Positions 1 through 53,500 of a stretch of 64,000 nt of DNA are shown here, one piece after another. The DNA is from Sphingomonas pruni NBRC 15498 (GTDB lineage: Bacteria > Pseudomonadota > Alphaproteobacteria > Sphingomonadales > Sphingomonadaceae), in assembly GCF_001598455.1 (NCBI RefSeq), contig NZ_BCYZ01000010.1, positions 1-64,000 on the forward strand, in the 5' to 3' direction. The notes beneath the pieces were generated by a model. It saw only the letters and a program-made list of their open reading frames with translations, did not search any database and had not been told where the DNA came from. How positions within the stretch are numbered: position 1 is the first letter of the stretch; each line of letters opens with the position of its first letter. The translations under genes and the position numbers were made by a program.

Positions 1-17
1 GGGTGGTTAGCGGCCGT

Positions 18-541: not shown

Positions 542-566
542 GCGAAGCGAGGTGGCTGGAGGCGGC

Positions 567-1466
567 CTACACCCCTGGCGCTCCCAGCCTGGGCGGTTCG
601 TTCGCGGGTAGAGCGAACACCGAGAGGCTGGCAATAACCAGCATAGCCAGGGTCAGGACGCTGCCCTCCGGACCATCGAATCCGCCTGTCAGGTAATCGG
701 GCCCGATCGGTACGAGTTTGACCAGCAGGGCCGGCAGGTGAGCATCCAGCCCCGTAATGGGGACACCGAATCCAACGCCGGCAAACCAATTCCATCCGGC
801 ATGCCAGCCCATGACCCCCCAAATGCTGTTGGCGCGGCGCGCCCAGGCGCATGCGAAGACCGAGAACAGGAATGAGAGGCAGGTCACGCGCAGGGGCTGG
901 TGCGGGGAATAATGGAGAAACGTAAAGGCAACCGAGGTCGCGACGATCCCCGCGACGAGATTCCATCTTCTCGTGACGGACGAGAGAAGCCAGCCGCGAA
1001 AGATGAATTCCTCGACGCCCGACTGGAAGGCGAAGCAAGGCAGCAGCAACGCGATCCAGGCAAGAGACGAGGCCGAGGCGAATGCCGGAAAACCCGCCTC
1101 GACCCGATAGCCGCCGGCCAGCCAGATTGCCGAAATCGCCAGACCCATCATCGCGATGCCGATGGCCAGGCCGCCCAGGAACTTTCGCAGCCGGCCGGAC
1201 CCGGTAAGCCCCAGGGTCTTCAGTGCGCGACGCTCGACATAACGGGACCATGCGTAAGTTGCCGCGGCCATGGTCGCGAACGGCAGCAGGAGGAAAAGGC
1301 AGAAGGCCGCCGCAGTCAGCGGATCGCCCTTGGCATCGACCAAACCCCAATGCTCCATGAGGAAGTCGATTGGAACGCTCGAAAGAGCGACCAGCAAGAT
1401 GCATATAACCGGGGCAAGCCAAACGAAGGGCAACCAGCCTCGATGCGGGGTCGGCTCGTAAATCAT
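567..1466 (-). CDS. CPBP-family intramembrane metalloprotease
   Basis: This polytopic protein of about 299 residues has the three CPBP (Abi/CAAX protease-like) motifs in order: EEFIFRGW with the paired glutamates and arginine, FLHY with the first metal-ligand histidine, and GWHAGWNW with the second. Hydrophobic stretches near the start (FVWLAPVICILLVAL) and around the motifs would make about eight membrane helices. Family members cleave within the membrane, and in bacteria some act in bacteriocin immunity or peptide maturation. The reading frame opens further upstream, to 1,601. I chose the ATG at 1,466 because the first membrane helix follows shortly after it. No clear ribosome binding site decides the start. 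It appears to be ICE cargo. Confidence 0.85.
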   Translation of the reverse strand: MIYEPTPHRGWLPFVWLAPVICILLVALSSVPIDFLMEHWGLVDAKGDPLTAAAFCLFLLLPFATMAAATYAWSRYVERRALKTLGLTGSGRLRKFLGGLAIGIAMMGLAISAIWLAGGYRVEAGFPAFASASSLAWIALLLPCFAFQSGVEEFIFRGWLLSSVTRRWNLVAGIVATSVAFTFLHYSPHQPLRVTCLSFLFSVFACAWARRANSIWGVMGWHAGWNWFAGVGFGVPITGLDAHLPALLVKLVPIGPDYLTGGFDGPEGSVLTLAMLVIASLSVFALPANEPPRLGAPGV

Positions 1467-1624
1467 GTTCGGCACTGTATTGCCGTTATAATACACCTGT
1501 GCCGAAGTCAAGACTTCTACTTTTCGGCCATCCTGCTCGAGCTCAGGTCCGGGAGTCCGGCACGCCATCTTGAACGCAAGGCAGATTGGCGTCCGCCCCA
1601 TAAAACGTTTTCCGCACGACGGGT

Positions 1625-1822
1625 TCAGGGATTGCTGAAGCTTTCGTAAGCGGATTTTGCCGGGATGCTTATCGAAATGACCGTCCCCTTGCCGAACTCG
1701 CTTTCGAGCGTGAGGGCGCCACCAATGCGTTCCGCCGGTTCCCGCATGCCGATCAGCCCGAATGAACGCCGCCGCGATCTTGACCGGTCATCAGCGGATC
1801 TACACCTCCGATAGGCCAGCAA
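1625..1822 (-). pseudogene. Remnant of a sensor histidine kinase (ATPase C-terminus)
   Basis: The last ~45 residues match the end of a NarL/DesK-type kinase ATPase domain: a G-box-like GLIGMREPAERIGG followed by LESEFGKGTVISISIP. The sequence before it (an Arg/Ser-rich stretch) is not kinase-like, and no frame upstream restores the dimerisation or N-box parts. About nine tenths of the gene is therefore missing. An intact kinase would sense a signal and phosphorylate a response regulator; no regulator gene is adjacent. It probably marks an old insertion or deletion junction inside the element. Confidence 0.6.
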
Positions 1823-2093
1823 TGAATCGATTGGCTGGATGGGCGTGCCGCGGCGGACAGTCGTCTATAGTTGAGGATGGCTAGCGCCTGGAATCCTCGA
1901 GATTTCCGCTGCTCAGCTCCAGGCATTCGTCTCAGCCTGTGCGGAACTGCGCCAACGCTGAACCCTGTCCCGGTGTGGCAGGGGGGTCGAATTCGCGCAT
2001 AGCCGTTTTCGACCCTGCACGGCGCGGGTCGAGCGGGCGAAAAGGAGCCCGACGCGGCGCACTCGGGCGCTGCGCTGGAACCCCGGATGCGCC

Positions 2094-2318
2094 ATGCCCG
2101 ATGTTGACGACCGCGCCGCCAAGGCGCGTACGAGCTGTCCGTTTCTGACCGCCAAGCAGGCGGCCTACCATCTCGGGCTGGCGGCCAGTTCGATGAAAGG
2201 GCTGCGCGCCAGGGGCAGGGGGCCGCGGTGCCGCCTCCACGGCCGTGCCTGGTATTATCATATCGACGATCTCGAGGCGTGGTCCCTCGCGCAAGTCCGG
2301 GGCGAAGGTCGTGATTGA
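2094..2318 (+). CDS. Helix-turn-helix DNA-binding protein
   Basis: A 74-residue protein with a MerR/excisionase-like helix-turn-helix (FLTAKQAAYHLGL, about residues 17-29) followed by a wing containing WYYHIDDLEAW. This layout matches the small HTH_17 proteins that open many conjugative modules and act as regulators or directionality factors. It overlaps the start of the TraF gene by 8 bp, so the two are probably co-transcribed. The target site is unknown. Confidence 0.75.
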   Translation: MPDVDDRAAKARTSCPFLTAKQAAYHLGLAASSMKGLRARGRGPRCRLHGRAWYYHIDDLEAWSLAQVRGEGRD

Positions 2319-2880
2319 TCGGGTCGATCGTGCGCTCGCGAGCTTTGGCGACGCGCTGCGCCGGGCGCGTGCCCGCCGCCGCCGGCTGGTCTGGTTGAGC
2401 GGGCTCACGGCAATCGGGTGTCTGGCCCTTCTGGAGCCGATGGTTTTGCCATCGCGGCCACGGCTGCTCTGGAATGCCAGCGCGAGCATGCCGATTGGCC
2501 TCTATCGCGTCGGCCCAGCGCAAGCGCTCCGGGTCGGCGATCTCGCCATCGCCTTTCCGCCCGCCCCGGCAGCGGCGATCGCGGGGGCGCGCGGCTATGT
2601 GCCGCGCGCGGTACCGCTGCTCAAGGATATCGCCGCGATCGCCGGGCAGCGCGTCTGCGCCCAGGGCACGGTCGTTTCGGTCGACGGCTGGCCGGTTGCT
2701 CTCCGCCATCGGCTCGATCGCCGCGGCCGTCCTTTGCCATGGTGGTCGGGCTGTCGTCGCCTCGGCATGGGCGACCTGTTCCTCCTCGGGCGGTCGGCGG
2801 ATTCGTTCGACGGCCGCTATTTCGGCCCGACCGATCGACCGGACGTGCTTGGTCGCGCGGTGCCGTTATGGCTGCGCTGA
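2311..2880 (+). CDS. traF: TraF-like S26 signal peptidase of the conjugation system
   Basis: The 189-residue protein has one N-terminal membrane segment (LVWLSGLTAIGCLALL), then the S26 serine block (ASMPIGLYR, serine before MPIG) and the lysine block (PLLKDIAAIAGQRVC). These form the Ser-Lys dyad of TraF/LepB-type peptidases. In RP4-like systems TraF cyclises the TrbC pilin after its C-terminal processing, which fits the trbC gene 20 kb downstream. I chose the GTG at 2,311, which has a purine-rich GGCGAAGG upstream and overlaps the HTH gene. Its end overlaps the transglycosylase start by 13 bp. Confidence 0.85.
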   Translation: MIDRVDRALASFGDALRRARARRRRLVWLSGLTAIGCLALLEPMVLPSRPRLLWNASASMPIGLYRVGPAQALRVGDLAIAFPPAPAAAIAGARGYVPRAVPLLKDIAAIAGQRVCAQGTVVSVDGWPVALRHRLDRRGRPLPWWSGCRRLGMGDLFLLGRSADSFDGRYFGPTDRPDVLGRAVPLWLR

Positions 2881-3431
2881 GATTGCTGGCGATCGCCGTG
2901 GCATTCGCGCCAGTGCCGGCCGCTGCCCGACGCGTGGCCGACTGGCAACCCTATATGGCCGAAGCGTCGCAGCGTTTCGCTGTGCCCGTCTCCTGGATCG
3001 CGGCGGTGATGCGCATCGAAAGCGGCGGCCAGACGACGCTGGGCGGGCGTCCGATCGTCAGCCGCGCGGGGGCGATGGGGCCCATGCAGGTGATGCCCGC
3101 GACCTGGGCGTCGCTGCGGGCCGCATTGGCGTTGGGCCAGGACCCGTTCGATCCCCATGACAATATCCTGGCAGGCGCTGCCTATCTGCGGATGATGTAC
3201 GACCGCTTCGGCTATCCCGGTTGCTTTGCCGCCTATAATGCCGGGCCCGCCCGATATGCCGCCTATCTCGCGGGGCGCCCGCTCCCGGCGGAAACCGTCG
3301 ACTATGTGGCGGCGGTCGGATCGCTGCGTACAGGCGATGCCGGGGTGACCGGGCGGGTTGGGTCCGGTGGTGTAGTGCGCGCGATTACGCCCGCTGCCGC
3401 CACTGTCTTCGCCATCCCGCCGCGATGGTGA
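2868..3431 (+). CDS. Lytic transglycosylase (SLT domain) for conjugation
   Basis: A signal peptide (LRLLAIAVAFAPVPAAA) is followed by an SLT goose-lysozyme-like domain. It has the catalytic glutamate in MRIESGG, then GAMGPMQVMPATW and FAAYNAGPARY, all standard family motifs. The product, 187 residues, would act in the periplasm to open peptidoglycan locally so that the mating channel can be built (VirB1 role). It is translationally coupled to the peptidase gene upstream. About 180 bp without a gene separates it from the giant cargo gene that follows. Confidence 0.9.
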   Translation: MAALRLLAIAVAFAPVPAAARRVADWQPYMAEASQRFAVPVSWIAAVMRIESGGQTTLGGRPIVSRAGAMGPMQVMPATWASLRAALALGQDPFDPHDNILAGAAYLRMMYDRFGYPGCFAAYNAGPARYAAYLAGRPLPAETVDYVAAVGSLRTGDAGVTGRVGSGGVVRAITPAAATVFAIPPRW

Positions 3432-3611
3432 CCGGGCCTCGTTCGCGCGCGCACACCCGCTAACCTCATCATCTTGGCACCATCGGCTTGCTATTTGCCC
3501 CAGGCTTCAAGCAGATGGCGCGATGGGCGAGGGGGCTGAACTTCACGACTGTCTGCGGTTCGGCGTTTGCCGTGCGCCCGGCCTGTTCGCCGGGACGTCG
3601 GCGCGCGGCTG

Positions 3612-6600
3612 ATGGCAGTGCCGGGCATCGATCCGCCCCAACAGGAAACGCGGCCGCCGCGGCTCGAAGGCTGGGACTGGCAGCAGCTCGAGCGCCTGAC
3701 CGAAGCATTGCTGGCACACGAACCCGATGTGGTGACGGCCAGTCAGTATGGCATTCCGGGGCAGACGCAGTTCGGCATCGACACCAAGGCCGAGCTGCAG
3801 GGCGGCGGCTGCCATGTCGCGTCGTGCAAGGCTCATGCGGCAATCGAGAAGGGCGATCTCGCCACCTGGTCGACGGCGTTCCTGAAACATTGGGACAGCA
3901 AATGGAAAGCCAAGCGCGTCGGGCGCTTTATCCTTACGACGACCGCGCCGGTCGCGCCCACCCATGTCGTCGACGAGGCCGACACCGAGCGCGAGCGGTT
4001 CCGCAAGGTCGGGGTTCAATATGAATTGTGGGGGCAGCCCCAGCTGATCGAGCGGATGCGGCCGCACCGCGGCATCGTCGCTCAATATCTCGGCACCGAC
4101 TGGGTCGACCGGCTGTGCGGGCCGCGGCAGCGCGAAGCGCTGCAGGCGCTCGGATCCTCGGTCGGGACCCAGCCGGTCGAGACGAGCCAGATCGCCGAAT
4201 TGCGCGCCATGCTATCGGGCGAGGCCGAGAAGAAGGTCGCGCGCGCGCTCGACGACTTGCGCGCCGGGGAGGTCGGCGCGGTCGAGCGCAGCCTGGCGGA
4301 GTTGCGTGATCCGCAATTGTGGTGCCAGCTCGAGCCGGGCGCTCAGGCGCGCGTGCTGCGCTTTGCCGCCTCGACGGCGCTCCATCGCGAGGACCTCGAT
4401 GGCGCCGCCGCGCTCGATGCCGAAGCGACGGCGATCCAGCCGGCGGCCGAACCGCGCATCGCGGCCCGGATCGCCGCCGTGCGCGACGGTGCCCGCGCCG
4501 GCCTCGCCACGCTCGGCACGCCTACGACCCGTGACGGCCGCCAGCTCCAGACGGCATTGTACCTGTCATGCGGCGATATCGACAGCGCGGAGGCGGTGCT
4601 CGCGCTCCTCGCCGCCGATGAGCCCGATCCGGAAACCACCCGGCTCCAGGCCTGGGCCCTGCTGATGCGCAACAAGCGAACCGAGGCGCTCGACCTCGTC
4701 GAGCAGCTCGAACGCGAGGCCGGACACTGGACCGCGTCGATACGCACGATTGCCATTGTACGCTACGCCGCCGCCTTGTCGCCGATGCTGGCGCCCGAAT
4801 GGTTCCTCAATGCCAGCCCGGTCGATTTCGATCTCGTCCGCGACGATGACGAAGCCCATGCCTGGCTAGTCAGCGCCACCACCGGCCTGCAGTCGCTCGT
4901 CGACCGCGGCGGCGATCGCGACGATCGTCACTGGCTGCTCGCCGCGCTTTCGAACCAGCTTGAGCGCCGCGCTGACGCCGAGGCGCTGGCGTGCGCGCTC
5001 CTCCTGAAAGATCCCGGCGATCCGATTCCGGTCGCCTGGTCGCTCTCGCGCCGATTCACCGTGGACCTCGCCGAAAGCCGGCGGCTTTATGCCGACCGTT
5101 ATGCCGCCGGCATGACCGAGCAGATCGAAGCCCGTATCCATGCGCTGCTGCTCGTGTCCGAGGGCGATACCGCCGCTGCCCGTGTGGCGCTCGAGGCCCA
5201 TCTCGCGGCCCAGTCGGGCGAGGCGCGCAGCGAGGCGGAGACCTGGATCGCCCGGCTCGCCGCTGATCTCGGCGAGGGTGATACCGGGACACCGGTGCCG
5301 GCGACCGACACGTTCGTCGACGACATCCAGGCCGCGCGGTCGAGCGGCGACTGGTCGGGGGTCAAGCAGGGGTTCGACACGCTCGCCGGGAGCGGCCAGC
5401 CGCAGACGCTCGCGGCGGCCCAGCTGATCGCTGCAGAAGGCCAATGGTCGATCCTCCAGCCGCACCGGAGCGCGATCCTTGGTTTCGCGACGGCTGAGGC
5501 GGTCCGCATCGTCGCGTATCTCATCGCCTCGACCGGCGTCGACGGCGAGCTGGTCGAGTTCATCGAACAACATCGCGCCGTGTTCCGCAACGGCGTGCCG
5601 CCGCCCGATGTCCGGCGGCTCATCGTCGACCAGCAGCAGAAGGCGGGCGACCTGGTCGGCGCACTCGAGACCGCCCGCGCGCTCAGCGCCGAATCGGGCG
5701 CGGCGGTCGACCGCCACCTCGAGGCGCGGCTGCGGGCGGGTATCGGCGATACCGGCGGCGCGGCGCGGATCGTGCGCGACCTGATGCGCAGCGCCGATCT
5801 GGCCCCCGACGCCGCGCTTGCCTGGGTCGAGACCTTGCGCGCGAGCGACATGACGCTCGCCCAGGAACTGTGGCGGTTCGCCGTCGAGCGCGATGCGCAG
5901 CGCCGCCTTGCCGTGTCGGCGTTCGTCCAGGCCTTCTCGATCGGGCTCGAGAATGAGGCAGCGCCCTTCCGGCTCGACTTCATGCAGGCCGCCGATGAGG
6001 GGACAGGGCCCGCCCGTAAATTCGATGTCGCCGAGCTGCCGGCCTTCATCGCCTCGCAGAACGCCACCGCCGAGGAGCATTGGGCGCTCTATCTCGACGG
6101 CCGCATCCCCGCCCATCTGCTCGCCGAGCACCAGAACCTCTCGCTCGACGCCCTGCTGCTCGAATCGCCCAACAGCGCAGCCGGCCCGCTCAAACTCCGG
6201 CTGTGGCGGAACGGCGCCCGGCCGCGCCATCTCGATGTCGGGCTGCCATGGTCGCAGTGGCGTCTGCACATGGATATTTCGGCGCTGCTCGTCGCCGCGC
6301 ATGCCGACCTCCTCGATATCGTCGAACGCCACCCCAATCCGGTGCGGATCTCGCCGGCCGTGCCCGCGGCGCTCGTCGACATGCATCGGCGCGTCGCACC
6401 GGCACAGCCCGCGCGCCTCGCCTCGCTGCGCACACTCGCCGATATGTTCGGCAACGGTCTCGTCGAGCGGGCGCGGGAGAGTGGCGGTCGCGTCGTCGCG
6501 CTGCGCGACCCGGATGGCGATCGGGACATGGACATGGATGTCGGCCAGCTGGTCGATGCCGCCTTTGCGGCCGGGGTGATCGACGAGGCCACGACGTTGC

Positions 6601-9600
6601 GTGCGCGCGCCGCAATGCCGGCGCCGGCCGCCGACCAGGCCGCGGTGACCACGCCGCTTGTCGCCGGCGACCGCCTGTGGCTCGCGGGTGCGGCCGCCGA
6701 GCAGCTCCTTGAGCTGGACCTTTTGTCCGCGCTGTGTCTCGGGTTCGATGTCGGGATCGACCCCGAGGTCGCGCGCGGGATACGCCATTATGTCGCGGCC
6801 GAGGAGGGCAAGGCGCGCCGCGCCGCGTTCCTCGACAGCTTGCGCGAGCGGATCCGGCTAGGCATCGAGGCAGGCCGGTTCGAGCTGATCCGGCGACATG
6901 CGGATCGCGAGGTTGATACCCGCAACCCCACGACCCTGTGTCTTATCGATCTGCTCAACGCCGAGCCGATCGACGGCGCGGTCGATTGGTACGAAGACCG
7001 CCAGCTGACTGGCTATCCGGCCAATAACAGCCATGTGATCGTCGAGCTGGTCGACATTCTCGGCGCGCTCGTCGCCGATGGCGTCCTGAGCGAGGCCGAA
7101 GCGCGGGCCCGATTGAGTCGCTTGCTCGGTGACGGGGCCGGGCTGATCCAGCTCGAGTCCGCCGACGTGGTCCCGGCAATTCTTGCGGCGCCCGTCGTCG
7201 ACGGCGAATTGCGCGAGACGCCTGCCTTGGTCGCGATCCGCCGCAACCGCGCGGCACACCGGCTGTTGGAGCCGCGGCTGAAAGTCGGGAAAAGCGACGA
7301 TCCCGACGATCACCGCCCCGACGAAACGCGCTTGGTGCTGGCCGATATGAGGCTCGCCGAAGAATGCCTCGCGGCGATCTGGTCGGACCCGGTGCAATCG
7401 ATCGCGAGTTGCGCCGCGCGCTCTGAATGGGTCTGGGCAACGCTCAGAATGGAGCGATCACTGCGGGCGATTCCCGAGGACGCCCCCGGCGGCGCGGCGC
7501 GCACGCTCGCAGCGCTCTCCTTCCATTCGGCGGTCGAGACGCTCGCGATGCCGGGCGAGGTGCCGCTTGGGCTGCGCCGCATCCGCCGGCGCGCCTTTGC
7601 CAACTGGTTCTGGCTAACGGCGCTCGGCCCCCACCGCAAAGGCGATCCCGACATCCTCGAGCGCATCGCCGATCTCTTCGAAGCGCTTTATCTGCCCCGT
7701 TTGACCGGGCGCGACCCAACCGCGACACGCCCTGCAGTCGAGCTGTCGCTGATCAAGATTCGCGCCGGGGCGCTGCCGCAGCCCTTGATCAGCGTGCTGG
7801 CGACGCGCCCGATCGGCCCTTGGCTCGGGCTGCACTCGAACGAGGTTGTCACTATTCGCGGCGCGCGCTTCGAGGCCGATCGCTTCTGGCGCGCCGTGCG
7901 CACCGCGCGTCGCTACGGTCCGACCAACGTGCGCACGCTCGAGGGCAAGAAATGCCGTATCGTGCGCACCGACAATGGCGTCGCGATCAGCGGAGCGGTG
8001 CGCGCGCGGCTCGCGGATACGCTGTGCAGCCTGTTCGACCCACGGGTGCGCCCGATCGACCGATATGATGAGTTGCTCGCCGAGCTCGAGCTGACCGCGG
8101 CCGATCTCGAAAAATTCAGGGTCGAGGGGCGCGCGGCCCGCACGCCCAACCGGCTGGTCAGCGCGCTGATCGCCGCGCGCAAGCGCAGCGCCCGCGCGGT
8201 CTATGGCGATCTCGATGCCGCATTCCAGCCCAATCTGCGCATCGCACTCGGCGCCTTCTACCCGCCGCCAGCGAGCGCCCTGCTGCGCTACCTGCGGATC
8301 GAGCCGGGTGACGCTCCCTTCACCGACCGGCTGCGCACAGCCGGTCCGCGCCTCGCCGCCGATGTCGGCGCGCGGATGGCGCTGCGCCGCTTGAGCGGTT
8401 TGCCGATCGCCGGTCTGCTCGGCCTGGCCGGACTTCCGCTCTCGCCCGAGATTCAGGCCGAGCTCGATCGCGCCGTGACGCCGATCCAGCTTTATCGCCG
8501 CGCCGAGAACGCGCTCCGTGACGCGCCCGATACGGCCGGACGGCAAGCGATCGTGCACGCGCTGATCGAAGCGCTGCGCGCGACTGGCCCGGCGCTGACC
8601 GCCATCCTGCGCTGGACTGTGCGAGCCTTCTGGGAGGATTCGGAATTCCGGGCGCTGGGCGCGGCCGATCGGCTGGCGCTCACCTGGGTGCATGCCAATC
8701 GCGTGCTCGACACGTTCCTGCGCCGCAACGCCGATACCGACTTACTGACCCGCTTCTTCACCGAAGGCCATTTCGACGAGAATATCGCCGATCGCCTCAA
8801 CTTCGCACGGTTTGGCGACCGCGACGCCGCGTCGTCGAGCGGGATGTCCGCCGATGCCTTGCTCTATCACGCGCTCGGGGCGTTGATCGGCGACGCGCCG
8901 ATGGCCGATTATGTCGACGAGGGCGAGCTCGACGATCTGGTGAACGGTCTCCAGATCGCCGAGCCCGATGGGTCGGTGCCGATCCCGGCGCTGATCCTGC
9001 GCAACTTTGCCGGCCAGAACCTGCTCGGCAGCTTCCTGACGGCCCATGCGCCGGCGCTCGATGCGCTGATCGGGGATCCGATGGTGAAGCGCGCGAGTCT
9101 CGGCGACGACGCGATCCGAGATATCAGGGCGAACCGCGAAGACGGCATCGCCTGGTCGATGCTGATGCAGCATTCGCGCACCGGGCTGTCCCCTGAGCAG
9201 GAGGCGTCGGCGCAGGCCCTGTTGCGCGACAGCGATCTGGAGGGGCTGTCGATGGGGGCGCGCGACGGACTGCCGGTTCCGCGTGCCATGATCCGCACGA
9301 TCGGACTGTTGTTGCCGCAAGCCGACCATGGGAGAGCGCTCGACGTGATCCGGGCGGTGGCGCGCGCAGCAGCGGCGGACGGCCTGTCGCCCTTGCTGTC
9401 GGGCGATCGCGAGGAAGGCAGCGCGCTCGATCCTGTCCATGAGCTGCTCGAACTCGCCGGATGCTATGCCGGGATCGAGGAAGCCGATCTGTTCGAGCGG
9501 TTCGAGGCGGCGATCGTGGCGGCGGTCGAGGAATGGCCGGCCGCGGCGCCGTCGTTGCGCAAGCTGGTCGACCGGCTGATCCGCAGTAACGGCGTGATCC

Positions 9601-26333: not shown

Positions 26334-26450
26334 GGCCACCCCCACGCCGATGGTGACGGCGGGTGCGCCCCCGCCCGCCGTCACACCCCGCGAGGCGCGC
26401 GGCACCGCTCCCCCGTCGCGCGTCTCGTGGGGCTCCAATGCAGCAGGACA

Positions 26451-27770
26451 ATGCGTATGGACGACCTGAGCGTCATCGACCGGTTCATGGCCGGGTTCAC
26501 CCAATATATCGACAACGGGTTCGGCTTGTTGGGGGGTGACGTCCATTTCCTTGCCGCCACGCTGATCGGCATCGATGTGACGCTCGCGGGCCTATTCTGG
26601 GCGCTCGGCGGCGAAGCCGATGTGATGGGGCGCTTCATCAAGAAAATCCTCTATGTCGGCGCCTTCGCCTACATCATCGGCAGCTTCTCGACCCTGGCCG
26701 GGATCATCTTCAGGTCATTCGCTGCAGCCGGCGTCACCGCCAGCGGCGGTACCATCAGCGCTGGCGATCTTCTGAAACCCGGAACGCTGGCCGAAGCCGG
26801 TTGGGAAGCGGCCTGGCCGCTCCTCCAGCAGATCAACGGCTTAACCGGTCCGGTTGCCTTCTTCACCAACGTCGGCACGATCCTGATCCTGCTGATCGCC
26901 TGGCTGCTGGTTGTCCTCGCCTTTTTCATTCTCGCGATCCAGGTCTTCGTGACGATCATCGAGTTCAAACTCACGACACTCGCGGGATTCGTGCTCGTGC
27001 CGTTCGCGCTGTGGAACCGCACGAGCTTTTTGGCAGAGCGCGTGCTCGGCAACGTCGTCAGCTCGGGCATCAAGATCATGGTGCTCGCCGTTATCATCGG
27101 CATCGGTTCGAACTTTTTCCAGCAATACGCCACCTCGCTCGACGCCAACACGCCGGACATCGTCAAGGCGCTGACTCTCGTTCTTGCGGCCCTCACCATT
27201 TTCGGGCTCGGCATTTTCGGCCCAGGGGTCGCGGCCGGTCTGGTTTCCGGCGCGCCGCAGCTCGGCGCGGGTGCCGCGGTCGGCACGACCTTGGGCGCAG
27301 CTGGCGTCATCGCGGTCGGCGGCGGCGCGGTCGCGGCGGGCGCGGGCGCTGCGGGTAGCGCGGCACTCGGTGCCGTCCGCGCGGGCACGTCAATGGGGTC
27401 GGCGGCCTCCACTGCCTACAAACTCGGCCAAGAAGGCGCTCAGTCGAAGAGTGTCGGCGCCGGGCTTTCCGGAATCGCCCAGGCCGGTGCCGGTGCAATG
27501 CGCGCGAGGGCGGCCGAGGCAGCCGGATCGTTCGGCATCGGCGAGGCGGCCGCCTCGGGCCGCCAGGCGGCGTTCGACGCGCTGACCAATCGCACCGAGG
27601 CCAAGGCTGCCAAAGCGACTAGCGGCGAGGGTGGGGCGCCGGGCTGGGCGCAGGCGCTGCGCCGCGAATCCGAAGCCCGCCACCAGCGCCAGATCGTCGC
27701 CCACACCTTGAAGGAAGGCGATTCCGCCAGCGCTGCCGCCAACCCCGACATTTCAGAGAAGGAGGATTGA
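26451..27770 (+). CDS. trbL: TrbL (VirB6-like) polytopic channel protein
   Basis: The 439-residue protein opens with the family's DRFMAGFTQYIDNGFGLL and has at least six hydrophobic segments, for example ILILLIAWLLVVLAFFILAI and VLAVIIGIGSNFF. A long Gly/Ala-rich cytoplasmic or periplasmic tail (from about 270) follows. TrbL/VirB6 forms the inner-membrane pore. AGGA precedes the ATG at 26,451; the ATG at 26,457 is an alternative. The trbF gene starts 4 bases after the stop. Confidence 0.9.
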   Translation: MRMDDLSVIDRFMAGFTQYIDNGFGLLGGDVHFLAATLIGIDVTLAGLFWALGGEADVMGRFIKKILYVGAFAYIIGSFSTLAGIIFRSFAAAGVTASGGTISAGDLLKPGTLAEAGWEAAWPLLQQINGLTGPVAFFTNVGTILILLIAWLLVVLAFFILAIQVFVTIIEFKLTTLAGFVLVPFALWNRTSFLAERVLGNVVSSGIKIMVLAVIIGIGSNFFQQYATSLDANTPDIVKALTLVLAALTIFGLGIFGPGVAAGLVSGAPQLGAGAAVGTTLGAAGVIAVGGGAVAAGAGAAGSAALGAVRAGTSMGSAASTAYKLGQEGAQSKSVGAGLSGIAQAGAGAMRARAAEAAGSFGIGEAAASGRQAAFDALTNRTEAKAAKATSGEGGAPGWAQALRRESEARHQRQIVAHTLKEGDSASAAANPDISEKED

Positions 27771-27774
27771 CCCG

Positions 27775-28593
27775 ATGATCTTCAAACGTGCCGTCCAGCG
27801 CTATGGGCGGACGCCCGAGCCCGCGACTCCCTTCCAACGCGCCGGCCAACTCTGGGATGAGCGGATCGGTTCGGCCCGCGTCCAGGCGCGCAACTGGCGA
27901 CTGATGGCGTTCGGTGCGCTCGGGCTCACCACGGCAATGTCGGGCGCGGTCGTCTGGCAATCGCTCCAGAGCCGCGTCACACCCTATGTCGTCGAGGTCG
28001 ACCGTCTGGGCGAGGCGCGCGCGGTCACCGAAGTCGAGGCGAGCTATCGGCCGACCGATCCTCAGGTAGCGTGGCATCTCGCCAGGTTCGTCGAGAACGT
28101 CCGCTCGGTGTCGCTCGACCCGGTGCTGATGCGCCGCAACTGGCTCACCGCCTACGACTTCGTGACCAAACGCGGTGCGATTGCGCTCGGCGACTATGCG
28201 CGCAGCGCCAACCCGTTCGGTGCCCTGGGTGACAAGACCGTCTCGGTACAGGTCACGAGCGTCGTTCGTGCGTCCGACCAGTCGTTCCAGATCAAGTGGA
28301 TCGAGACTGCCTACGACCGAGGCGCGCAGACCGGCACGAGCCATTGGACCGGAATCCTCAGCATCAAGCTGATCCCGCCCGTCGATGCCGACACGATCCG
28401 CAAGAACCCGCTCGGGGTTTATGTCGATGCGATCGACTGGAGTCGCGAGCTCGAGCCGCCAAGTGCTGCGCCGTCCCCGCCGGCGAGTGCGCCCGCGGTC
28501 CCTGCCGTCGACCCGACCGTGCCTTCGGGTTCGCCGCTCGATCCCACCTCCGGCGCGCGCCCGGCGCCCGCCCTCCCGGAGACCCAGAAATGA
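27775..28593 (+). CDS. trbF: TrbF (VirB8-like) inner-membrane assembly protein
   Basis: The 272-residue protein has one membrane helix (LMAFGALGLTTAMSGAVVW, about 43-61) and a periplasmic NTF2-like VirB8 domain. Family motifs include TPYVVEVDRLGEA, NVRSVSLDPVLMRRNW and WTGILSIKLIPP. The C-terminal 40 residues are proline/alanine-rich. It links the inner-membrane complex with the core channel. The stop overlaps the trbG ATG by 4 bases. Confidence 0.92.
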   Translation: MIFKRAVQRYGRTPEPATPFQRAGQLWDERIGSARVQARNWRLMAFGALGLTTAMSGAVVWQSLQSRVTPYVVEVDRLGEARAVTEVEASYRPTDPQVAWHLARFVENVRSVSLDPVLMRRNWLTAYDFVTKRGAIALGDYARSANPFGALGDKTVSVQVTSVVRASDQSFQIKWIETAYDRGAQTGTSHWTGILSIKLIPPVDADTIRKNPLGVYVDAIDWSRELEPPSAAPSPPASAPAVPAVDPTVPSGSPLDPTSGARPAPALPETQK

Positions 28594-29438
28594 CCAGCCT
28601 TCGCTCCTTGCCATTGCTCGCTCTCGCGATCGCGTCGAGCGCGTCCGCCTCGCCGGCAAAGCGAGTTCCTGCGCGTCCAATTGCGGCCCGGGCTGTTGCC
28701 GCCGCCAACGCGGCAAGCACGGTTGAGCCCGCCGCCAACACCTTCATCGCCGCGAGCGCGGTGCTGCCGTTCGTCGACGGCCAGATTTACCATGTGCTGA
28801 CCGCTCCCGAAGCGGTGACCGACATCCTGCTGCAGCCAGGCGAGACGCTCGGCTCGGTCGCGGCGGGGGATACCGCACGCTGGGTGATCGGGGACACGAC
28901 CAGCGGCAGCGGTGCCGACAAGCGCGCGCACGTTCTGGTGAAACCCATCGGCCCTGGTCTCGCCACCAACCTCATCATCACCACCGACCGGCGAACCTAC
29001 CATCTGACGCTGACCAGCACCGCTGGGCCGGCAATGTCTGCGCTGTCCTGGACCTATCCGCAGGACAGCATGCTGGCGCTGAAGCGCGCCGCCGATGCCA
29101 CCGCCGCCGCGGTGCCGGTCGCCGCGGGGCTCGACATCGACCAGCTGCATTTCGATTACGCGATATCGGGCGACAAGGTCGCCTGGCGTCCCTTGCGCGC
29201 CTTCGACGATGGCAAGCAGACCTATATCGAACTGCCCGCCGGGCTCGGCGCGACCGACGCACCACCGCTGTTCGTGATCGGCGCCAAGGGCGCGGCCGAG
29301 CTCGTCAACTTCCGCCTGCGCGGTCGCTATTATGTCGTCGACCGGCTCTTCGACGTCGCCGAGATGCGGCTCGGCACCAAGCACCAGCAGATCGTGCGGA
29401 TCGTTCGCGGAACGGCGCGGCGCGGGAGGGCGGCATGA
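28590..29438 (+). CDS. trbG: TrbG (VirB9-like) core-channel protein
   Basis: A secreted 282-residue protein: a signal peptide (RSLPLLALAIASSASA) precedes an alanine-rich linker. The N-terminal VirB9 domain contains GQIYHVLTAPEAVTDILLQPGE, and the C-terminal beta domain contains LHFDYAISGDKVAWRPLRAFDDG. VirB9 proteins line the outer ring of the transfer channel. The ATG at 28,590 overlaps trbF. An upstream extension of the frame is only a shadow of trbF. Confidence 0.92.
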   Translation: MTSLRSLPLLALAIASSASASPAKRVPARPIAARAVAAANAASTVEPAANTFIAASAVLPFVDGQIYHVLTAPEAVTDILLQPGETLGSVAAGDTARWVIGDTTSGSGADKRAHVLVKPIGPGLATNLIITTDRRTYHLTLTSTAGPAMSALSWTYPQDSMLALKRAADATAAAVPVAAGLDIDQLHFDYAISGDKVAWRPLRAFDDGKQTYIELPAGLGATDAPPLFVIGAKGAAELVNFRLRGRYYVVDRLFDVAEMRLGTKHQQIVRIVRGTARRGRAA

Positions 29439-30667
29439 CCGAGCCGCTGATGAACGACGACGCGCCGGCGCCGATCCCGGAGAAGCTCGATCCCGAATCG
29501 CTTGTCCTGCGCGCTCGGCCGGCCCGCGCAATTCGCTTCCGCCGCGGGGTCATCGTGTCGCTTGCCGCGGTTGCGGCTGGGGGCGTGGCGGTGACATCGT
29601 GGTTCGCGTTCGAACCCCATGCGCTCCATCTCGCTGCCAATCCCGACGACCAGCAGCCCGGCGTCAAGCCGCCGAGCGACACGCTGAGCGCGCTCCCGGC
29701 GAGCTATGGCGACACCCCGAAGCTGGGCCCACCGCTGCCGGGCGATCTGGGACGACCGATCCTCGATCGCCAGCGCCAGCCCGCGACCGTCCCAACCGGG
29801 CAACCGGTGCCGCCTTCCGGCATCGACAAGGCACAGGCTGCTGCCGAGGCGCGGCAGCGGCGGCTGGAGGCGTTGGCGGCCGCGCGCGCGTCGGGATTGA
29901 TGGTCCAGTCGTCGACTCGCCCTGCCGGCACGTCTGCCGGAGCGGCGACACCGGTACCATCGTCAGCGCCGGGCGAGGCGGCTGCAAAATTGCCGCTCGA
30001 TCCCGCGAACGATCCCAACGACCAGCAACGCAAGATCGACTTTGCCTCGAGCGCGACAAAGGACGTCGAGGTCAACCCGAACCGGATCGCGCCCGCGCCG
30101 TCTCCGTACACGCTCTCGGCGGGAAGCCTGATCACGGCCAGTCTGAGCACGGGGCTGCGCTCCGATCTGCCGGGAATGGTCACGGCGCAGGTCACGCAGC
30201 GCGTGTTCGACAGCGCGACGGGCTCGATCCTGCTCGTACCGCAAGGCGCGCGCCTGATCGGCAAGTACGATTCGGTGGTGGCTTTCGGGCAGCGCCGGGC
30301 GCTGGTCATCTGGCAGCGGATCATCTTTCCCGACGGGAGTTCGATCAGGATCGATAATGCGCCGGCGAGCGATCCCTCCGGCTATGCCGGACTCGCTGAC
30401 AAGGTGGACTTCCACACCTGGGCCCTCCTCAAGGGCGTCGTGCTCTCGACAATGCTTGGAGTCGGGGCGGAGTTGCAGTTCAGTGGTCGCGGCGATCTGG
30501 TCGATGCACTGCGTCAGTCGGCCGAGCAGAACGTGTCGAGGGCAGGGGATCAGATTACCTCGCGTAACCTGCAGATCCAGCCAACGATCACGGTGCGACC
30601 CGGCGCTTCGGTCAGGCTGCTCGTGAACCAGGATCTCGTATTGAAGCCTTGGCAGGAGCCGCGGTGA
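29435..30667 (+). CDS. trbI: TrbI (VirB10-like) core-channel protein
   Basis: The 410-residue protein has a cytoplasmic N-terminus, one membrane helix (GVIVSLAAVAAGGVAVTSWFAF), a proline-rich periplasmic stretch and the VirB10 beta-barrel domain: SAGSLITASLSTGLRSDLPG, ILLVPQGARLIGKYDS and IWQRIIFPDGSSIRI. It spans from the inner to the outer membrane. The start overlaps trbG by 4 bases, and the stop shares a base with the DUF2274 start. Confidence 0.93.
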   Translation: MTEPLMNDDAPAPIPEKLDPESLVLRARPARAIRFRRGVIVSLAAVAAGGVAVTSWFAFEPHALHLAANPDDQQPGVKPPSDTLSALPASYGDTPKLGPPLPGDLGRPILDRQRQPATVPTGQPVPPSGIDKAQAAAEARQRRLEALAAARASGLMVQSSTRPAGTSAGAATPVPSSAPGEAAAKLPLDPANDPNDQQRKIDFASSATKDVEVNPNRIAPAPSPYTLSAGSLITASLSTGLRSDLPGMVTAQVTQRVFDSATGSILLVPQGARLIGKYDSVVAFGQRRALVIWQRIIFPDGSSIRIDNAPASDPSGYAGLADKVDFHTWALLKGVVLSTMLGVGAELQFSGRGDLVDALRQSAEQNVSRAGDQITSRNLQIQPTITVRPGASVRLLVNQDLVLKPWQEPR

Positions 30668-30888
30668 TGGCCGATCTCAAGCTCGGGCGGCTTCCGGACC
30701 GCACACCGGTCAAACTCAGCATACAGGTGACGCCGCAACTCCAGGCCGATCTGACCCGCTATGCCGACGCGTATGAGGCGGCTTATGGCCAACGCGAGGC
30801 GATCGCCGACCTCATACCGTTCATGCTCACCAGCTTTCTCGCCACCGATCGTGGTTTTGCCCGCTTTCTGGCCAAGGAAACGTCATGA
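30667..30888 (+). CDS. DUF2274 protein
   Basis: The 73-residue product matches DUF2274: MADLKLGRLPDRTPVKLSI, QLQADLTRYADAYEAAYGQ and IPFMLTSFLATDRGFARF. The family resembles a ribbon-helix-helix domain (PVKLSIQV followed by two helices) and always closes the trb operon in alphaproteobacterial elements. DNA binding and control of the operon are plausible but unproven. It overlaps both neighbours. Confidence 0.88.
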   Translation: MADLKLGRLPDRTPVKLSIQVTPQLQADLTRYADAYEAAYGQREAIADLIPFMLTSFLATDRGFARFLAKETS

Positions 30889-31106
30889 TGTCGCGAGCTC
30901 GACTGGAATCGGGGGAGGGGCAAGGGCCGGCGCTGTCGGAACGGCTCAGTGTTCGCATTCCTGTCGCCGTCGAGCTCACCGGCATCAGCCGATCCAAACT
31001 CTATGAGCTCATCAGGACCGGACAGGTGGCGATCGTCAAAGTCGGGGCGGCGACGGTGATTCCGATGGAGAGCCTCCGCCAGTTCATCGACGCAAACAAG
31101 CGCTGA
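30885..31106 (+). CDS. AlpA/excisionase-like HTH protein
   Basis: This 73-residue protein has a MerR-type helix-turn-helix core (IPVAVELTGISRSKLYELIRTG) and a wing (VAIVKVGAATVIPMESLRQFI), as in AlpA regulators and tyrosine-integrase excisionases. It is the last gene of the trb operon and ends 39 bases from the convergent integrase stop. This is a common place for a recombination directionality factor. Which role it plays cannot be told from sequence. Confidence 0.8.
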   Translation: MMSRARLESGEGQGPALSERLSVRIPVAVELTGISRSKLYELIRTGQVAIVKVGAATVIPMESLRQFIDANKR

Positions 31107-31145
31107 TCCGGTCTGGCCTTGACTGTCGGCCGCAGCGTCCGACAC

Positions 31146-32315
31146 CTAGATCGCCAACGTGTCCAGGGCTCTCACGGCCTCGTCGCCAACGAGGTGGCCG
31201 TAGTGCCGTTCGATCATCTGCACGCTCGTGTCGGAGATTTGCGCGACGGTGAGCAGGGGAAGCCTGGCGACAACAAGGTCAGTCAGCACGCAGTGCCGAA
31301 GAGTGTACGCGGTCGCTCCAGTCGGGAGGCCCGCCCGCGTCACGGCGTCCTTGATCGGTACTTTCCAGCCGTCCTTCTCCCAGCGGCGCCCGTCATCGCG
31401 CGAGAAGATATACGCAGCAGGGAGCTTGCCCTTGATGCGCTCGACCAGGAAGTCGGACACGCTTTGTGGAAGCATGATCTGCCGCGGCTTTCCGTTTTTG
31501 TCCTTGCCAATCGTGAGCGTCCGGGTCCGCTTGTCGAAATCGCCCGTCCGCAGACCTGCGAGAGCACCGGGGCGTAGAGGCAGCAGACAGAGACCCCGCA
31601 GGAACGGGTGCACCTCCGGGTCGGCGGCTTCCAACAACTTCTTGCGCTCGTCGCGATCGAGATAGAGGTCGCGGCGGCGATCAGCCCCCTTGGCCGGCTT
31701 CAGCGCCTCTTGCCATGCTGCTTCGGTGTTTGGAGCACCAAGCGGCAGAACTCTCCCTAGGGCTGCCCGAAGTGGAACCATGTCGCGATTGACGGTGGCG
31801 GCGGACCGCTCCTTGGTCTCGTTCTTCCCGAGTTTGCGTCGACCGACGAGGGCAGGAGCGTTCTCCAAGCGCTTTCGCCATTCCTTCGTGTGCCGCCGAC
31901 GAAGCTTGTCCAGCTTCACCTTGGCGATGGGGTCTTTGTAAACGTGCCGTCGAAACACCCCTTCCGCGATCGACCCCGGCTTTTCCTCCAGATAAGCTCG
32001 ACAGGCGTCCGCGACGGTTTCGAGCTTCTCCGAAGGCGTACCGCCGGTTTCCACCAACTCAGCCCAGGCTTCGGCATCCTTCTTCGCCTGGGTGAAAACG
32101 TCGTTGCCCGTGAGGGCGCCGTAGTCGCCCAACGCCTTGCGGGAATATTTCCCCGTATCCTCGTCGAAGGCTCGAGCGATCCATGTGCCTTTGCCCCCGC
32201 GCTTGGACGGGCGGAAGCCGATGTAGCAGCCTGCGTGGAGTCTCTGCCAATGCGGCTCCTTGTTCGCGTTGGGCTTAAGCTCTTCGCGTTTTCCGATCTT
32301 GCTCAGGTCAGGCAT
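31146..32315 (-). CDS. int: Tyrosine integrase of the ICE
   Basis: A 389-residue phage-type recombinase. The C-terminal catalytic domain shows the first arginine in LLPLRPGALAGLRTGDF, a lysine in GKDKNGKPR, the YTLRHCVLTDL box (Arg340, with Tyr at the position usually held by His) and the nucleophile Tyr372 in ERHYGHL. The N-terminus has an arm-binding/SAM-like helical part. It would catalyse integration at the tRNA-Val 3' half 132 bp upstream of its start. The reading frame opens to 32,450, across AT-rich repeats. I chose the ATG at 32,315 because the sequence before it is translated repeat DNA. Confidence 0.9.
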   Translation of the reverse strand: MPDLSKIGKREELKPNANKEPHWQRLHAGCYIGFRPSKRGGKGTWIARAFDEDTGKYSRKALGDYGALTGNDVFTQAKKDAEAWAELVETGGTPSEKLETVADACRAYLEEKPGSIAEGVFRRHVYKDPIAKVKLDKLRRRHTKEWRKRLENAPALVGRRKLGKNETKERSAATVNRDMVPLRAALGRVLPLGAPNTEAAWQEALKPAKGADRRRDLYLDRDERKKLLEAADPEVHPFLRGLCLLPLRPGALAGLRTGDFDKRTRTLTIGKDKNGKPRQIMLPQSVSDFLVERIKGKLPAAYIFSRDDGRRWEKDGWKVPIKDAVTRAGLPTGATAYTLRHCVLTDLVVARLPLLTVAQISDTSVQMIERHYGHLVGDEAVRALDTLAI

Positions 32316-32335
32316 GCCAATCACCGCGATGCAAA

Positions 32336-32364
32336 CGTATGAAACGTATGAAACACGTATGAAA
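32336..32364. repeat. Three direct repeats upstream of the integrase
   Basis: CGTATGAAA occurs three times, at 32,336-32,344, 32,345-32,353 and 32,356-32,364, in an AT-rich stretch between the integrase start and the tRNA-derived end. Spacings of 9 and 11 bases resemble arm-type integrase or excisionase sites, or an autoregulatory operator. Confidence 0.8.
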
Positions 32365-32447
32365 TACAGGGGTGAACGGCGCTGAACAAGAGTGTATATA
32401 TTACATGTACTTAGCTGTCCGAGAATGTCCGTATTTGTCCTAGTTCC

Positions 32448-32497
32448 CATCCTTCACACGGGTGGGGTCACAGGTTCAATCCCTGTCGCGCCCACCA
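32448..32497 (+). other. Attachment site: 3' half of tRNA-Val(CAC)
   Basis: The bases fold as an anticodon arm (CATCC, loop TTCACAC with anticodon CAC, GGGTG), a variable loop and a T-arm (ACAGG, TTCAATC, CCTGT). The 3' acceptor strand CGCGCCC and an encoded ACCA follow. No matching 5' acceptor strand or D-arm stands before it; that sequence is AT-rich with TGTCC repeats. It is therefore a displaced tRNA half, the right att site of the element, with the crossover probably in or near the anticodon arm. Confidence 0.85.
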
Positions 32498-51451: not shown

Positions 51452-51528
51452 GGCGGAGTAGCTCAGCTGGTTAGAGCACGGGAATCATAATCCTGGGGTC
51501 GGGGGTTCAAGTCCCTCCTCCGCTACCA
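51452..51528 (+). tRNA. tRNA-Met (CAT), elongator type
   Basis: Acceptor GGCGGAG pairs with CTCCGCT; the anticodon stem CGGGA/TCCTG closes the loop ATCATAA with anticodon CAT; T-loop TTCAAGT and ACCA are encoded. The G1-T72 pair and the body resemble the elongator tRNA rather than the initiator or tRNA-Ile2, though lysidine modification cannot be excluded by sequence. Its last 14 bases form one copy of a 15-bp direct repeat. Confidence 0.9.
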
Positions 51529-52920
51529 TATTGAACCCCCGACGGGTAAAATAGAAGGATAATAAAGAGTTATCTGAAGGTTTGGTGTCGCACCGCTACC
51601 AATTCATCTGAAAAACGGCCGAAAACAGCCGGTTTGTCCGTCTTGACTCCCCGACGATGGTTGAGTGCGACAAACTCTGGAAATCAGAGCGGACAAACTT
51701 ATTTGTCAGCCATGGCACCGCAGCATCAGCCTTACGTTCCGCGACTGCTGTTGAAGGGCTTTTTAAGTCGCGATCCAGCTAAGGCATCGAAAGAGCAGGT
51801 CCATGTCTTCGATCTGGAGACGGGAAACTCGTTTACGCCGCCTATCGACAAAATCATGGGCGAGACACGGTTCAACGACTTTTGGCTCGACGACGAAACG
51901 TTAGCGACGATTGAACCTGCGGCGAGTCGGATCGAGAGCCGCCTGGCGCCCCTCGTTGAGAATATTCGCGCAACGAAACGGTTGGAGCGGTCGCGCGAGG
52001 AGCGAGAGGATCTCGCCCTCCTTATGGCGTTTCAGTTCATCCGGACGAAGAAAATTCGTCTGCTTCCCGAGAGTCTTGATCGACAAATCCGGGTCCAGGT
52101 CGAGGAGATGGGTTTCGACCCCGGAAGAATAAAGGGCCTCCCGCTATTGAGCGAGGAGATACTCAAGCGAGAGCATGTGAGGCATCAGGTTCAGAACCTC
52201 GATACTTATGCGAAAATTATCGCCGAGAAGGAGCTGTTCCTGATGATGGCGCCGGACGGATGTACCTTTTATATCGGTGATAACCCGGTCGTCATGCACA
52301 CCGATGAGGAGCGGAAGGGATCAAGAGGCCACCTTGGATTGGGCGCTCCTTACATCCAAATTTATCTTCCGCTGTCCGCCGACGTAATGCTCTGCGCCTA
52401 TGATAAAGCGGTCTTAGGCCAGCTCATGAGAAGCAATGATGCGGAGGCCAGGCAAATTCAAATGGAGGCGCTTGGTATGCTCACCCGAGGTGAAATCACC
52501 CCATCTCAAATGAAGCGGACGCTGAATGACATGGCAGCGCTTGATGTTACGACGCCATTGATCAAAACCATTCGCGCCGGCGAGGCGGTGGCCGTGGCAG
52601 CCGAACAAGTCCAATGTTATAACTCACTCCAGGCTTTCCACGCGCATCGCTTTGTAATCGACCCCGACGGCAAGTTCGAAGTAGCAGCGGAAATGGTGGC
52701 GGAGCGAAAGGCTGCGGCCGATTGAGAGTGGGAGATGGCTGGAAAAAGCCGTCACCTATGTTTGCGCGAAAGGCAAAATGACCCATCGTGGAATGCCCGA
52801 TCCGCACGGCCCCGGCGGCAAAACCCACCCCACCAGGGTTTCTTTAAACCCATGAAAAATAAAACAAAAGTTCCATCCGTTGTAGTGTGCGTAACGACTG
52901 TTTCGCTCCTCCGCTACCAT
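51515..52920. mobile_element. 1.4-kb mini-island in tRNA-Met with DUF4238 cargo
   Basis: The tRNA-Met 3' end and one following base, CTCCTCCGCTACCAT at 51,515-51,529, recur exactly at 52,906-52,920. The 1,391 bp between the starts of the two copies are less GC-rich than the flanks. They contain one gene and no integrase or other recombinase. A tRNA-end duplication of this kind is the footprint of site-specific integration. Confidence 0.75.
51712..52725 (+). CDS. DUF4238 protein
   Basis: The 337-residue protein begins APQHQPYVPRLLLKGFLS, close to the QHYVP...L+.F opening of DUF4238. Further family-like blocks are DKIMGETRFNDFWLDDETLATIEPAASRIESRLAPLV, LMAFQFIRTKKIR, and FLMMAPDGCTFYIGDNPVVMHT, the last near residue 190. 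The function of the family is unknown. It is soluble and complete. Codon use is less GC-rich than the neighbours (for example AAA, TAT and ATT are frequent), which suggests transfer. It is the only gene in the tRNA-Met mini-island. The ATG at 51,712 is preferred over an earlier frame start whose sequence is not family-like. Confidence 0.8.
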   Translation: MAPQHQPYVPRLLLKGFLSRDPAKASKEQVHVFDLETGNSFTPPIDKIMGETRFNDFWLDDETLATIEPAASRIESRLAPLVENIRATKRLERSREEREDLALLMAFQFIRTKKIRLLPESLDRQIRVQVEEMGFDPGRIKGLPLLSEEILKREHVRHQVQNLDTYAKIIAEKELFLMMAPDGCTFYIGDNPVVMHTDEERKGSRGHLGLGAPYIQIYLPLSADVMLCAYDKAVLGQLMRSNDAEARQIQMEALGMLTRGEITPSQMKRTLNDMAALDVTTPLIKTIRAGEAVAVAAEQVQCYNSLQAFHAHRFVIDPDGKFEVAAEMVAERKAAAD

Positions 52921-52962
52921 TTCGACAGTCCGGTTGGACGTCTGGCGGATGATTTGGCGGTG

Positions 52963-52990
52963 GCACCGCCATTGTCGCACCGCCATTGTC
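52963..52990. repeat. Tandem duplication of 14 bp
   Basis: GCACCGCCATTGTC occurs twice in direct contact, at 52,963-52,976 and 52,977-52,990. It lies 43 bases after the right att copy of the mini-island. Confidence 0.85.
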
Positions 52991-53049
52991 GATACGCACA
53001 CCTTCCGCTTCCAAGCCTTTGGCCTCATCGGACTGCGCTCTAGAGTCGT

Positions 53050-53220
53050 TTTCAGCTTCGCTGAATCGGTACCGGCCCGCTCCCCCACCCGGCCGCCCAT
53101 AGAATACCCTGTTCGGCGGCCGGGTGGGGGAGCGGGCGGAGCAGAAGGTTCCGGCGATGCGCAGCATCGTTGGAATGACTGCGTAGGGCGGTACCGCAAC
53201 CGTTTCAGCTTCGCTGAAAC
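53050..53220. repeat. Nested inverted-repeat cluster
   Basis: A perfect 23-bp inverted repeat (53,075-53,097 with 53,115-53,137, 17-base loop) is flanked on both sides by the same hairpin sequence TTTCAGCTTCGCTGAA (53,050-53,065 and 53,203-53,218) and by CGGTACCG (53,067-53,074 and 53,189-53,196). The layout resembles REP-type or other palindromic non-autonomous units. No transposase lies nearby. Confidence 0.8.
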
Positions 53221-53500
53221 AGAGTTTAGGCAGGGCGCCTTTCTCCAATTCGGACATTCTGTCTGGCCATCGGCGGCGAGTTTCTCGCCGTCGCGTGAGC
53301 CTGCCCGGACGCCACTGCGCGTTCTCGCGAGCCTCGCTGCCGCGTCATCGGGGTTGTCCGATGAGATCAAGCGCGACTGAGACGCTGCAGGACAGCAAAA
53401 TTTTTAGGTAGTCCCACAATCTGGGATATGCGCACAATATTTGGCCTTTACACTCCGTGCCGATCTGTCTGACAATCCGCTTTTTGAAGATTGGGAAGAC

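What the first reader, a model, noticed from the sequence alone, without database searches (positions are those of the whole stretch)
51515..52920. Integrase-less mini-island flanked by a 15-bp tRNA-Met duplication
CTCCTCCGCTACCAT ends the tRNA-Met gene and recurs exactly 1,391 bp later. Only a DUF4238 gene lies between, with lower GC than the flanks. Such a small tRNA-bounded unit without its own recombinase is either a remnant or a satellite-like cassette moved in trans. DUF4238 is functionally unknown, so a defence or exclusion cargo is possible.
Basis: partly seen in the sequence, partly recalled or inferred. Interest (0 to 1): 0.7.

Follow-up and report, generated by a model that had tools for sequence, protein, structure and literature searches.

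The report
Recombinase-less mini-island carrying a defence gene
A 1.4-kb piece of foreign DNA with one gene from a proven anti-phage family sits inserted at the end of a tRNA-Met gene; it has both insertion scars but no recombinase of its own, and is probably the stripped-down remnant, or a passenger, of a larger mobile element.

Summary
CTCCTCCGCTACCAT occurs at 51515-51529 (tRNA-Met 3' end plus one base) and 52906-52920, nowhere else in the genome. Between them lies one intact DUF4238 gene at lower GC. Two close relatives carry a single copy there, followed by sequence homologous to the window's right flank and no DUF4238: a true empty site. DUF4238 is no longer wholly unknown: one DUF4238 gene from a P2-like phage hotspot gave strong T7 resistance (PMC9122126); mechanism unknown. 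This tRNA-Met is an island hot spot: at least 13 congeners carry 16-136 kb islands bounded by the same duplication. The window's attachment half-sites resemble those of an island with a large serine recombinase (G251), not the tyrosine-integrase islands, so a serine integrase probably made the insertion. Another congener (G158) carries a recombinase-less 1.47-kb element at the same 15-mer with different cargo (SMI1/KNR4), and G050 a 56-bp footprint of half-sites only. Best reading: a CIME-like remnant (attL and attR kept, recombinase lost). Movement of small cassettes in trans is not excluded. New member of a known kind, with a testable recombinase assignment.

The parts
51452..51528 (+). tRNA-Met(cat), the integration target; intact, 3' CCA encoded
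   Evidence: ARAGORN
51500..51511 (+). T-arm sequence CGGGGGTTCAAG, 3 nt from the core: candidate attB-side zinc-ribbon motif of a serine integrase
   Evidence: Sequence; rule from PMC3783163, (inferred)
51515..51529 (+). left core copy CTCCTCCGCTACCAT (attL)
51530..51547 (+). P' half-site next to the left core (ATTGAACCCCCGACGGGT), like G251's TCGTTACCCCCGATAAGGGT
   Evidence: inferred
51530..51711 (.). non-coding left interior; no relative in 295 congeners
51712..52725 (+). DUF4238 gene, 337 aa, intact; family with demonstrated anti-phage activity
   Evidence: PF14022 E 9.7e-32; PMC9122126
52726..52905 (.). non-coding right interior; no relative in congeners except the core-adjacent bases in G158
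52885..52905 (+). P half-site next to the right core: GTGTGC-GTAACGA-8 nt, as in G251 (GTAACGA at the same distance)
   Evidence: inferred
52906..52920 (+). right core copy CTCCTCCGCTACCAT (attR)
52921..53480 (.). right flank homologous to what follows the single tRNA-Met copy in G171 and G129 (old chromosome), interrupted by the dispersed repeat 53040-53224

Best explanation
A 1.39-kb integrated element at the 3' end of tRNA-Met. A site-specific recombinase, most likely a large serine integrase of the kind found on the G251 and G290 islands, joined a circular attP to attB at the tRNA end, which duplicated the 15-bp core and left the tRNA intact (insertion shown by the empty site; recombinase class inferred). 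The recombinase and any transfer genes are now missing, leaving attL, one DUF4238 gene and attR: the state called a CIME (cis-mobilizable element). Serine-integrase products do not reverse without a directionality factor, so the remnant would be stably held. The retained gene most likely gives phage resistance by an unknown mechanism (family activity shown elsewhere; this protein untested).
For: Two exact cores and nothing else in the genome. Single-copy empty sites in G171 and G129 with right-flank homology. Hot spot: 13 congeners with islands of 16-136 kb bounded by the same core. Half-sites on both sides resemble G251's serine-recombinase island (0 of 3,000 random pairs reach the sum; 12 other islands do not); same left edge of the core; the attP/attB 5-bp motif shift fits the serine-integrase rule. 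Serine recombinases at this tRNA in G251 and G290. Decay at this site is seen: about 87 C-terminal residues of a serine recombinase left in G181, a 56-bp half-site footprint in G050. DUF4238 family confers T7 resistance and its relatives lie in tRNA-associated loci and phage contigs.
Against: No recombinase fragment remains inside, so decay is not shown directly. The mini-island's two half-sites are not palindromic to each other, unlike those of G251 and G290; the half-site comparison is post hoc and rests on few bases. No parent island with the same interior ends was found in 295 congeners. A second element of nearly the same size at the same site (G158) fits a cassette as well.
Confidence: 0.58

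Rival explanations
1. A non-autonomous cassette that never had a recombinase: a small circle with a serine-integrase type attP and one cargo gene, integrated at tRNA-Met by a co-resident island's integrase acting in trans.
For: G158 has another recombinase-less element of nearly the same size (1,473 bp) with the identical 15-bp block and different cargo, and its own empty site in G033 and G047. No element between 1.5 and 15.9 kb was resolved. Both carry complete genes and no recombinase fragment.
Against: Only two elements, with unlike interior ends except next to the core. Decay at the same site is documented (G181, G050). No helper with a third core copy in the own genome, though a serine-recombinase search of it could not be run.
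Confidence: 0.25
2. The insertion was made by a tyrosine integrase of the P4 type, as in G040, G011 and G136, and the element is a remnant of such an island.
For: P4-type integrases sit next to the same tRNA with short identity blocks of 17-19 bp, close to the 15 bp here; a DUF4238 relative lies 10 kb from a tRNA-Tyr next to a P4-type integrase in G466.
Against: Their blocks start 3 bases further left (TCCCTCC...), and the window's half-sites do not resemble theirs (scores 0-7 per side against 14 and 11 for G251).
Confidence: 0.15
3. No mobile element: a core-genome DUF4238 gene with a chance or ancestral repeat next to it.
For: None found.
Against: Chance expectation about 6e-6 in 5 kb; the empty sites lack both the gene and the second copy; DUF4238 is absent from nearly all congeners.
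Confidence: 0.01

Closest known systems
CIME (cis-mobilizable element), a decayed ICE/IME that keeps attL and attR (definition in PMC5704250)
   Same: Both attachment sites kept at a tRNA 3' end, integration and transfer genes absent, one cargo gene kept
   Different: The parental ICE or IME is not identified, the recombinase was probably a serine integrase, and it is very small (1.39 kb)
DUF4238 single-gene defence system (PMC9122126)
   Same: Stand-alone gene of the same Pfam family on a mobile element
   Different: Carrier is a tRNA mini-island in an alphaproteobacterium, not a P2-like phage; direct similarity to the tested protein was not measured; activity untested
G251 tRNA-Met island with a large serine recombinase (23.5 kb)
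   Same: Same target, same left edge of the core, similar P and P' half-sites
   Different: Carries its recombinase and about 20 other reading frames; no DUF4238
G158 tRNA-Met element (1.47 kb)
   Same: Same target and identical 15-bp block, no recombinase, similar size, low GC
   Different: Cargo is a SMI1/KNR4 gene and a 128-codon frame; interior ends otherwise unrelated

Membership tests
CIME (cis-mobilizable element) | attL and attR retained | tested here: met
   Two exact 15-bp cores and single-copy empty sites
CIME (cis-mobilizable element) | Integration and transfer genes lost | tested here: met
   Only DUF4238 is present; no recombinase similarity. That they were once present is inferred.
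CIME (cis-mobilizable element) | Derived from an ICE or IME | tested here: inconclusive
   Half-sites resemble the G251 island; no parent with the same interior ends found
CIME (cis-mobilizable element) | Can be moved by a related element integrated in tandem | not testable with these tools
   Needs an experiment
DUF4238 protein family (PF14022) | Score above the curated cut-off over most of the domain | tested here: met
   110.9 bits against 27; profile 4-277 of 281
DUF4238 anti-phage system | Protects cells against phage | not testable with these tools
   Shown for one family member against T7; no PADLOC model matches this protein
Serine-integrase integrated element | P half-sites matching a serine-integrase attP, short core identity | tested here: inconclusive
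   Both sides resemble G251, 15-bp core, but the two arms are not palindromic to each other
Serine-integrase integrated element | Encodes a large serine recombinase | tested here: not met
   None inside; so it is not filed as an autonomous element
P4-type tyrosine-integrase tRNA island | Integrase gene next to attL and an identity block like those of G040, G011, G136 | tested here: not met
   No integrase; the block starts 3 bases later than theirs
Phage satellite (P4-like, PICI) | Own integrase and genes that hijack or redirect phage packaging | tested here: not met
   One DUF4238 gene only

The most novel reading that the evidence does not exclude
A family of about 1.4-kb recombinase-less cassettes, each with an attP of the serine-integrase type and one or two accessory or defence genes, that are inserted at tRNA-Met by the integrases of larger islands in trans; the window and G158 elements would be two members with different cargo.
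Probability: 0.22. Interest if true: 0.65.

Novelty: new member of a known kind. Interest (0 to 1): 0.42.

Why it matters
It gives one tRNA gene at which a whole series can be seen across one genus: full islands with serine or tyrosine recombinases, sites with a broken recombinase, 1.4-kb elements with one or two genes, and a 56-bp bare footprint. That makes it testable whether small defence cargos outlive their vehicles as remnants or travel as passengers of another element's integrase. It also places a DUF4238 defence gene in an alphaproteobacterium, with homologues near other tRNA genes and next to phage genes, as expected for a mobile defence gene.

Tried and rejected
Sister cassette with the same interior ends: none in 295 congeners; the short hits to the right end looked like chance matches inside unrelated coding sequence, except the G158 hit, which proved real. 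Recombinase remnant inside: none. Third degenerate core copy at 51593-51605: unexplained; CACCGCTACCA occurs four times in the genome, so it is weak evidence. Single-sequence structure model: unusable, pLDDT 38. With a 9-sequence alignment pLDDT is 78.5, but Foldseek gave no PDB match with E <= 0.001 and the second-look rows covered only residues 231-291 with middling Z, so the catalytic type of DUF4238 stays open; no PDB relative by sequence. PHROGs, NCBIfam and PADLOC gave no match to the protein, phage records none. The Porphyrobacter TH134 frame next to tRNA-Pro looked like a truncated integrase by eye, but Pfam and PHROGs gave no match, so I do not count it as one. The inverted repeat between the tRNA T-arm and the left interior was first taken as unique; similar sequence follows the core in G251 and G252, so it was reread as a P' half-site.

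Full report
Observation. The 15-mer CTCCTCCGCTACCAT stands at 51515-51529 and 52906-52920, 1,391 bp apart. It is found only at these two places in the 4.48-Mb genome and is far beyond chance. The tRNA-Met(cat) gene is 51452-51528, so the repeat covers the last 14 bases of the tRNA gene plus one. GC between the copies is 53% against 66% for the window, and the gene's GC3 is 63% against 87% for the neighbouring kup gene. The only gene inside is 51712-52725, a complete DUF4238 protein.

Empty site. The upstream side (kup, 2'-5' RNA ligase, tRNA-Met) is conserved in most congeners examined, and the downstream side is variable. Two close relatives, G171 and G129, share both sides with the window: tRNA-Met is followed by the oligogalacturonate-lyase-like gene (window 53501) 3.6-3.7 kb away. 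Both have a single copy of the core within the 19 kb examined, even at 2 mismatches, and the protein search found no DUF4238 in either G171 or G129 at order level (one search lists G171 without a match; G129 is not among the genomes with one). Sequence after their tRNA matches the window from 52921 on (local scores 51 and 37 against a shuffle maximum of 30), while the window's left interior does not. So the unit between the two cores was inserted, and the right-hand core marks the old chromosome. The same relatives carry a long gene between tRNA and lyase that looks like a TonB-dependent receptor by its sequence; it is missing in the window, a separate deletion.

Cargo. DUF4238 is rare: 3 of 100 relatives and 11 of 376 genomes of the order. 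Its closest relatives (60-61% identity) lie in tRNA-associated loci: in Porphyrobacter sp. TH134 on a 7-kb contig with a 20-bp tRNA-Pro 3'-end repeat 5.37 kb apart, and in G466 10 kb from a tRNA-Tyr with a P4-type integrase and a MobA/MobL relaxase between. A 52% relative sits in a viral contig near a terminase small subunit, and 32-36% relatives in prophage-like regions. On plasmids, distant family members (25-29%) neighbour a restriction gene in Agrobacterium and a DUF262 gene in E. coli. Rousset et al. cloned a single DUF4238 gene from a P2-like phage hotspot and saw strong resistance to T7 (PMC9122126). That is the only functional evidence; the mechanism is unknown. My model of the protein (pLDDT 78.5) has no PDB match with E <= 0.001 and one clear match among viral structures, an uncharacterised protein of Stenotrophomonas phage Smp131. 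Differences from the TH134 gene fall mostly at third codon positions (109, 71 and 218 at positions 1, 2 and 3), which suggests purifying selection. Whether this protein defends is inferred, not shown.

The site is a hot spot. Of 295 congeners 282 carry the 14-bp core, and 13 genomes have two same-strand copies on one contig, bounding islands of 16-136 kb. G051 adds one of 49.6 kb. Islands with tyrosine integrases have identity blocks of 45-67 bp, or of 17-19 bp for the P4-type integrases of G040, G011 and G136. G251 has a 14-bp block and a large serine recombinase (PF00239, PF07508, PF13408) directly next to the tRNA. Its attP has palindromic arms: CGGGGGTAACGA, 8 nt, core, TCGTTACCCCCG. G290 has a serine recombinase, a 15.9-kb island and the same geometry with a longer palindrome.

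Which recombinase made the mini-island? After its left core comes TATTGAACCCCCG and before its right core GTGTGC-GTAACGA-8 nt. Both resemble the G251 half-sites in place and sequence (anchored scores 14 and 11; no random pair in 3,000 reached the sum; the 12 other islands score 0-7 on each side). The block also starts at the same base as in G251, preceded by CG. The tRNA's own T-arm, CGGGGGTTCAAG, lies 3 nt from the core where the G251 P arm lies 8 nt away; a 5-bp inward shift of the zinc-ribbon motif in attB relative to attP is what was found for serine integrases (PMC3783163). I therefore favour a serine integrase at about 0.65. The comparison was made after the fact and on few bases, and the mini-island's two arms are not palindromic to each other.

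Remnant or passenger? At the same tRNA, G181 keeps only about 87 C-terminal residues of a serine recombinase, and G050 has a 56-bp footprint, two palindromic half-sites of the G290 type between two core copies. So decay at this place is real. On the other hand, G158 has a second recombinase-less element, 1,473 bp, with the identical 15-bp block, a SMI1/KNR4 (SUKH-1) gene and a 128-codon reading frame; congeners G033 and G047 show its empty site. No element between 1.5 and 15.9 kb was resolved, and several genomes with two copies were not resolved because their places were not listed. Two similar sizes are suggestive of cassettes but not enough. I put remnant (CIME-like; definition in PMC5704250) at about 0.6 and passenger in trans at about 0.25.

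Conclusion. As a kind it is known; the useful novelty is the graded series at one tRNA gene and the testable recombinase assignment.

Noticed in passing
L281 18114-19664 (G158, C1 about 418113-419663): A second recombinase-less tRNA-Met element, 1,473 bp between cores, identical 15-bp block, carrying a SMI1/KNR4 (SUKH-1) gene and a 128-codon frame; GC 58% against 65%.
   Followed up: partly
L136 (G050), just after the tRNA-Met core on the - strand: A 56-bp footprint: CTGAACCG...CGGTTCAG half-sites only, between two core copies (second with one mismatch), like an emptied G290-type serine-integrase element.
   Followed up: partly
L299/L300 (G181), next to tRNA-Met: Only about 87 C-terminal residues of a serine recombinase (74% to G290) remain next to the tRNA: a decayed island at the same site.
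   Followed up: partly
window 53460-53500: A long gene that looks like a TonB-dependent receptor lies between tRNA-Met and the lyase gene in G171 and G129 and is missing in the window, while the sequence before and after it is kept: a clean deletion.
   Followed up: partly
window 53040-53224: A dispersed repeat of about 185 bp, 98% identical copy on own contig C36, with 83-93% relatives elsewhere in G040, G129 and G171; absent from the empty sites.
   Followed up: no
window 26427-32450: TrbL and TrbI conjugation genes followed by a tyrosine integrase (31146-32450, -): the end of an ICE-like element about 20 kb upstream.
   Followed up: no
window 51593-51605 and 51638-51656: A degenerate third core copy (CCGCTACCAATTC, 12 of 13 to the right copy) and a degenerate second copy of the left half-site inside the element; origin unexplained.
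   Followed up: partly
L168 (Porphyrobacter sp. TH134) 1-7001: The 61% DUF4238 homologue lies between two copies of the last 20 bp of tRNA-Pro, 5.37 kb apart; a 393-aa frame next to the tRNA looks like a broken integrase but matches no family.
   Followed up: partly
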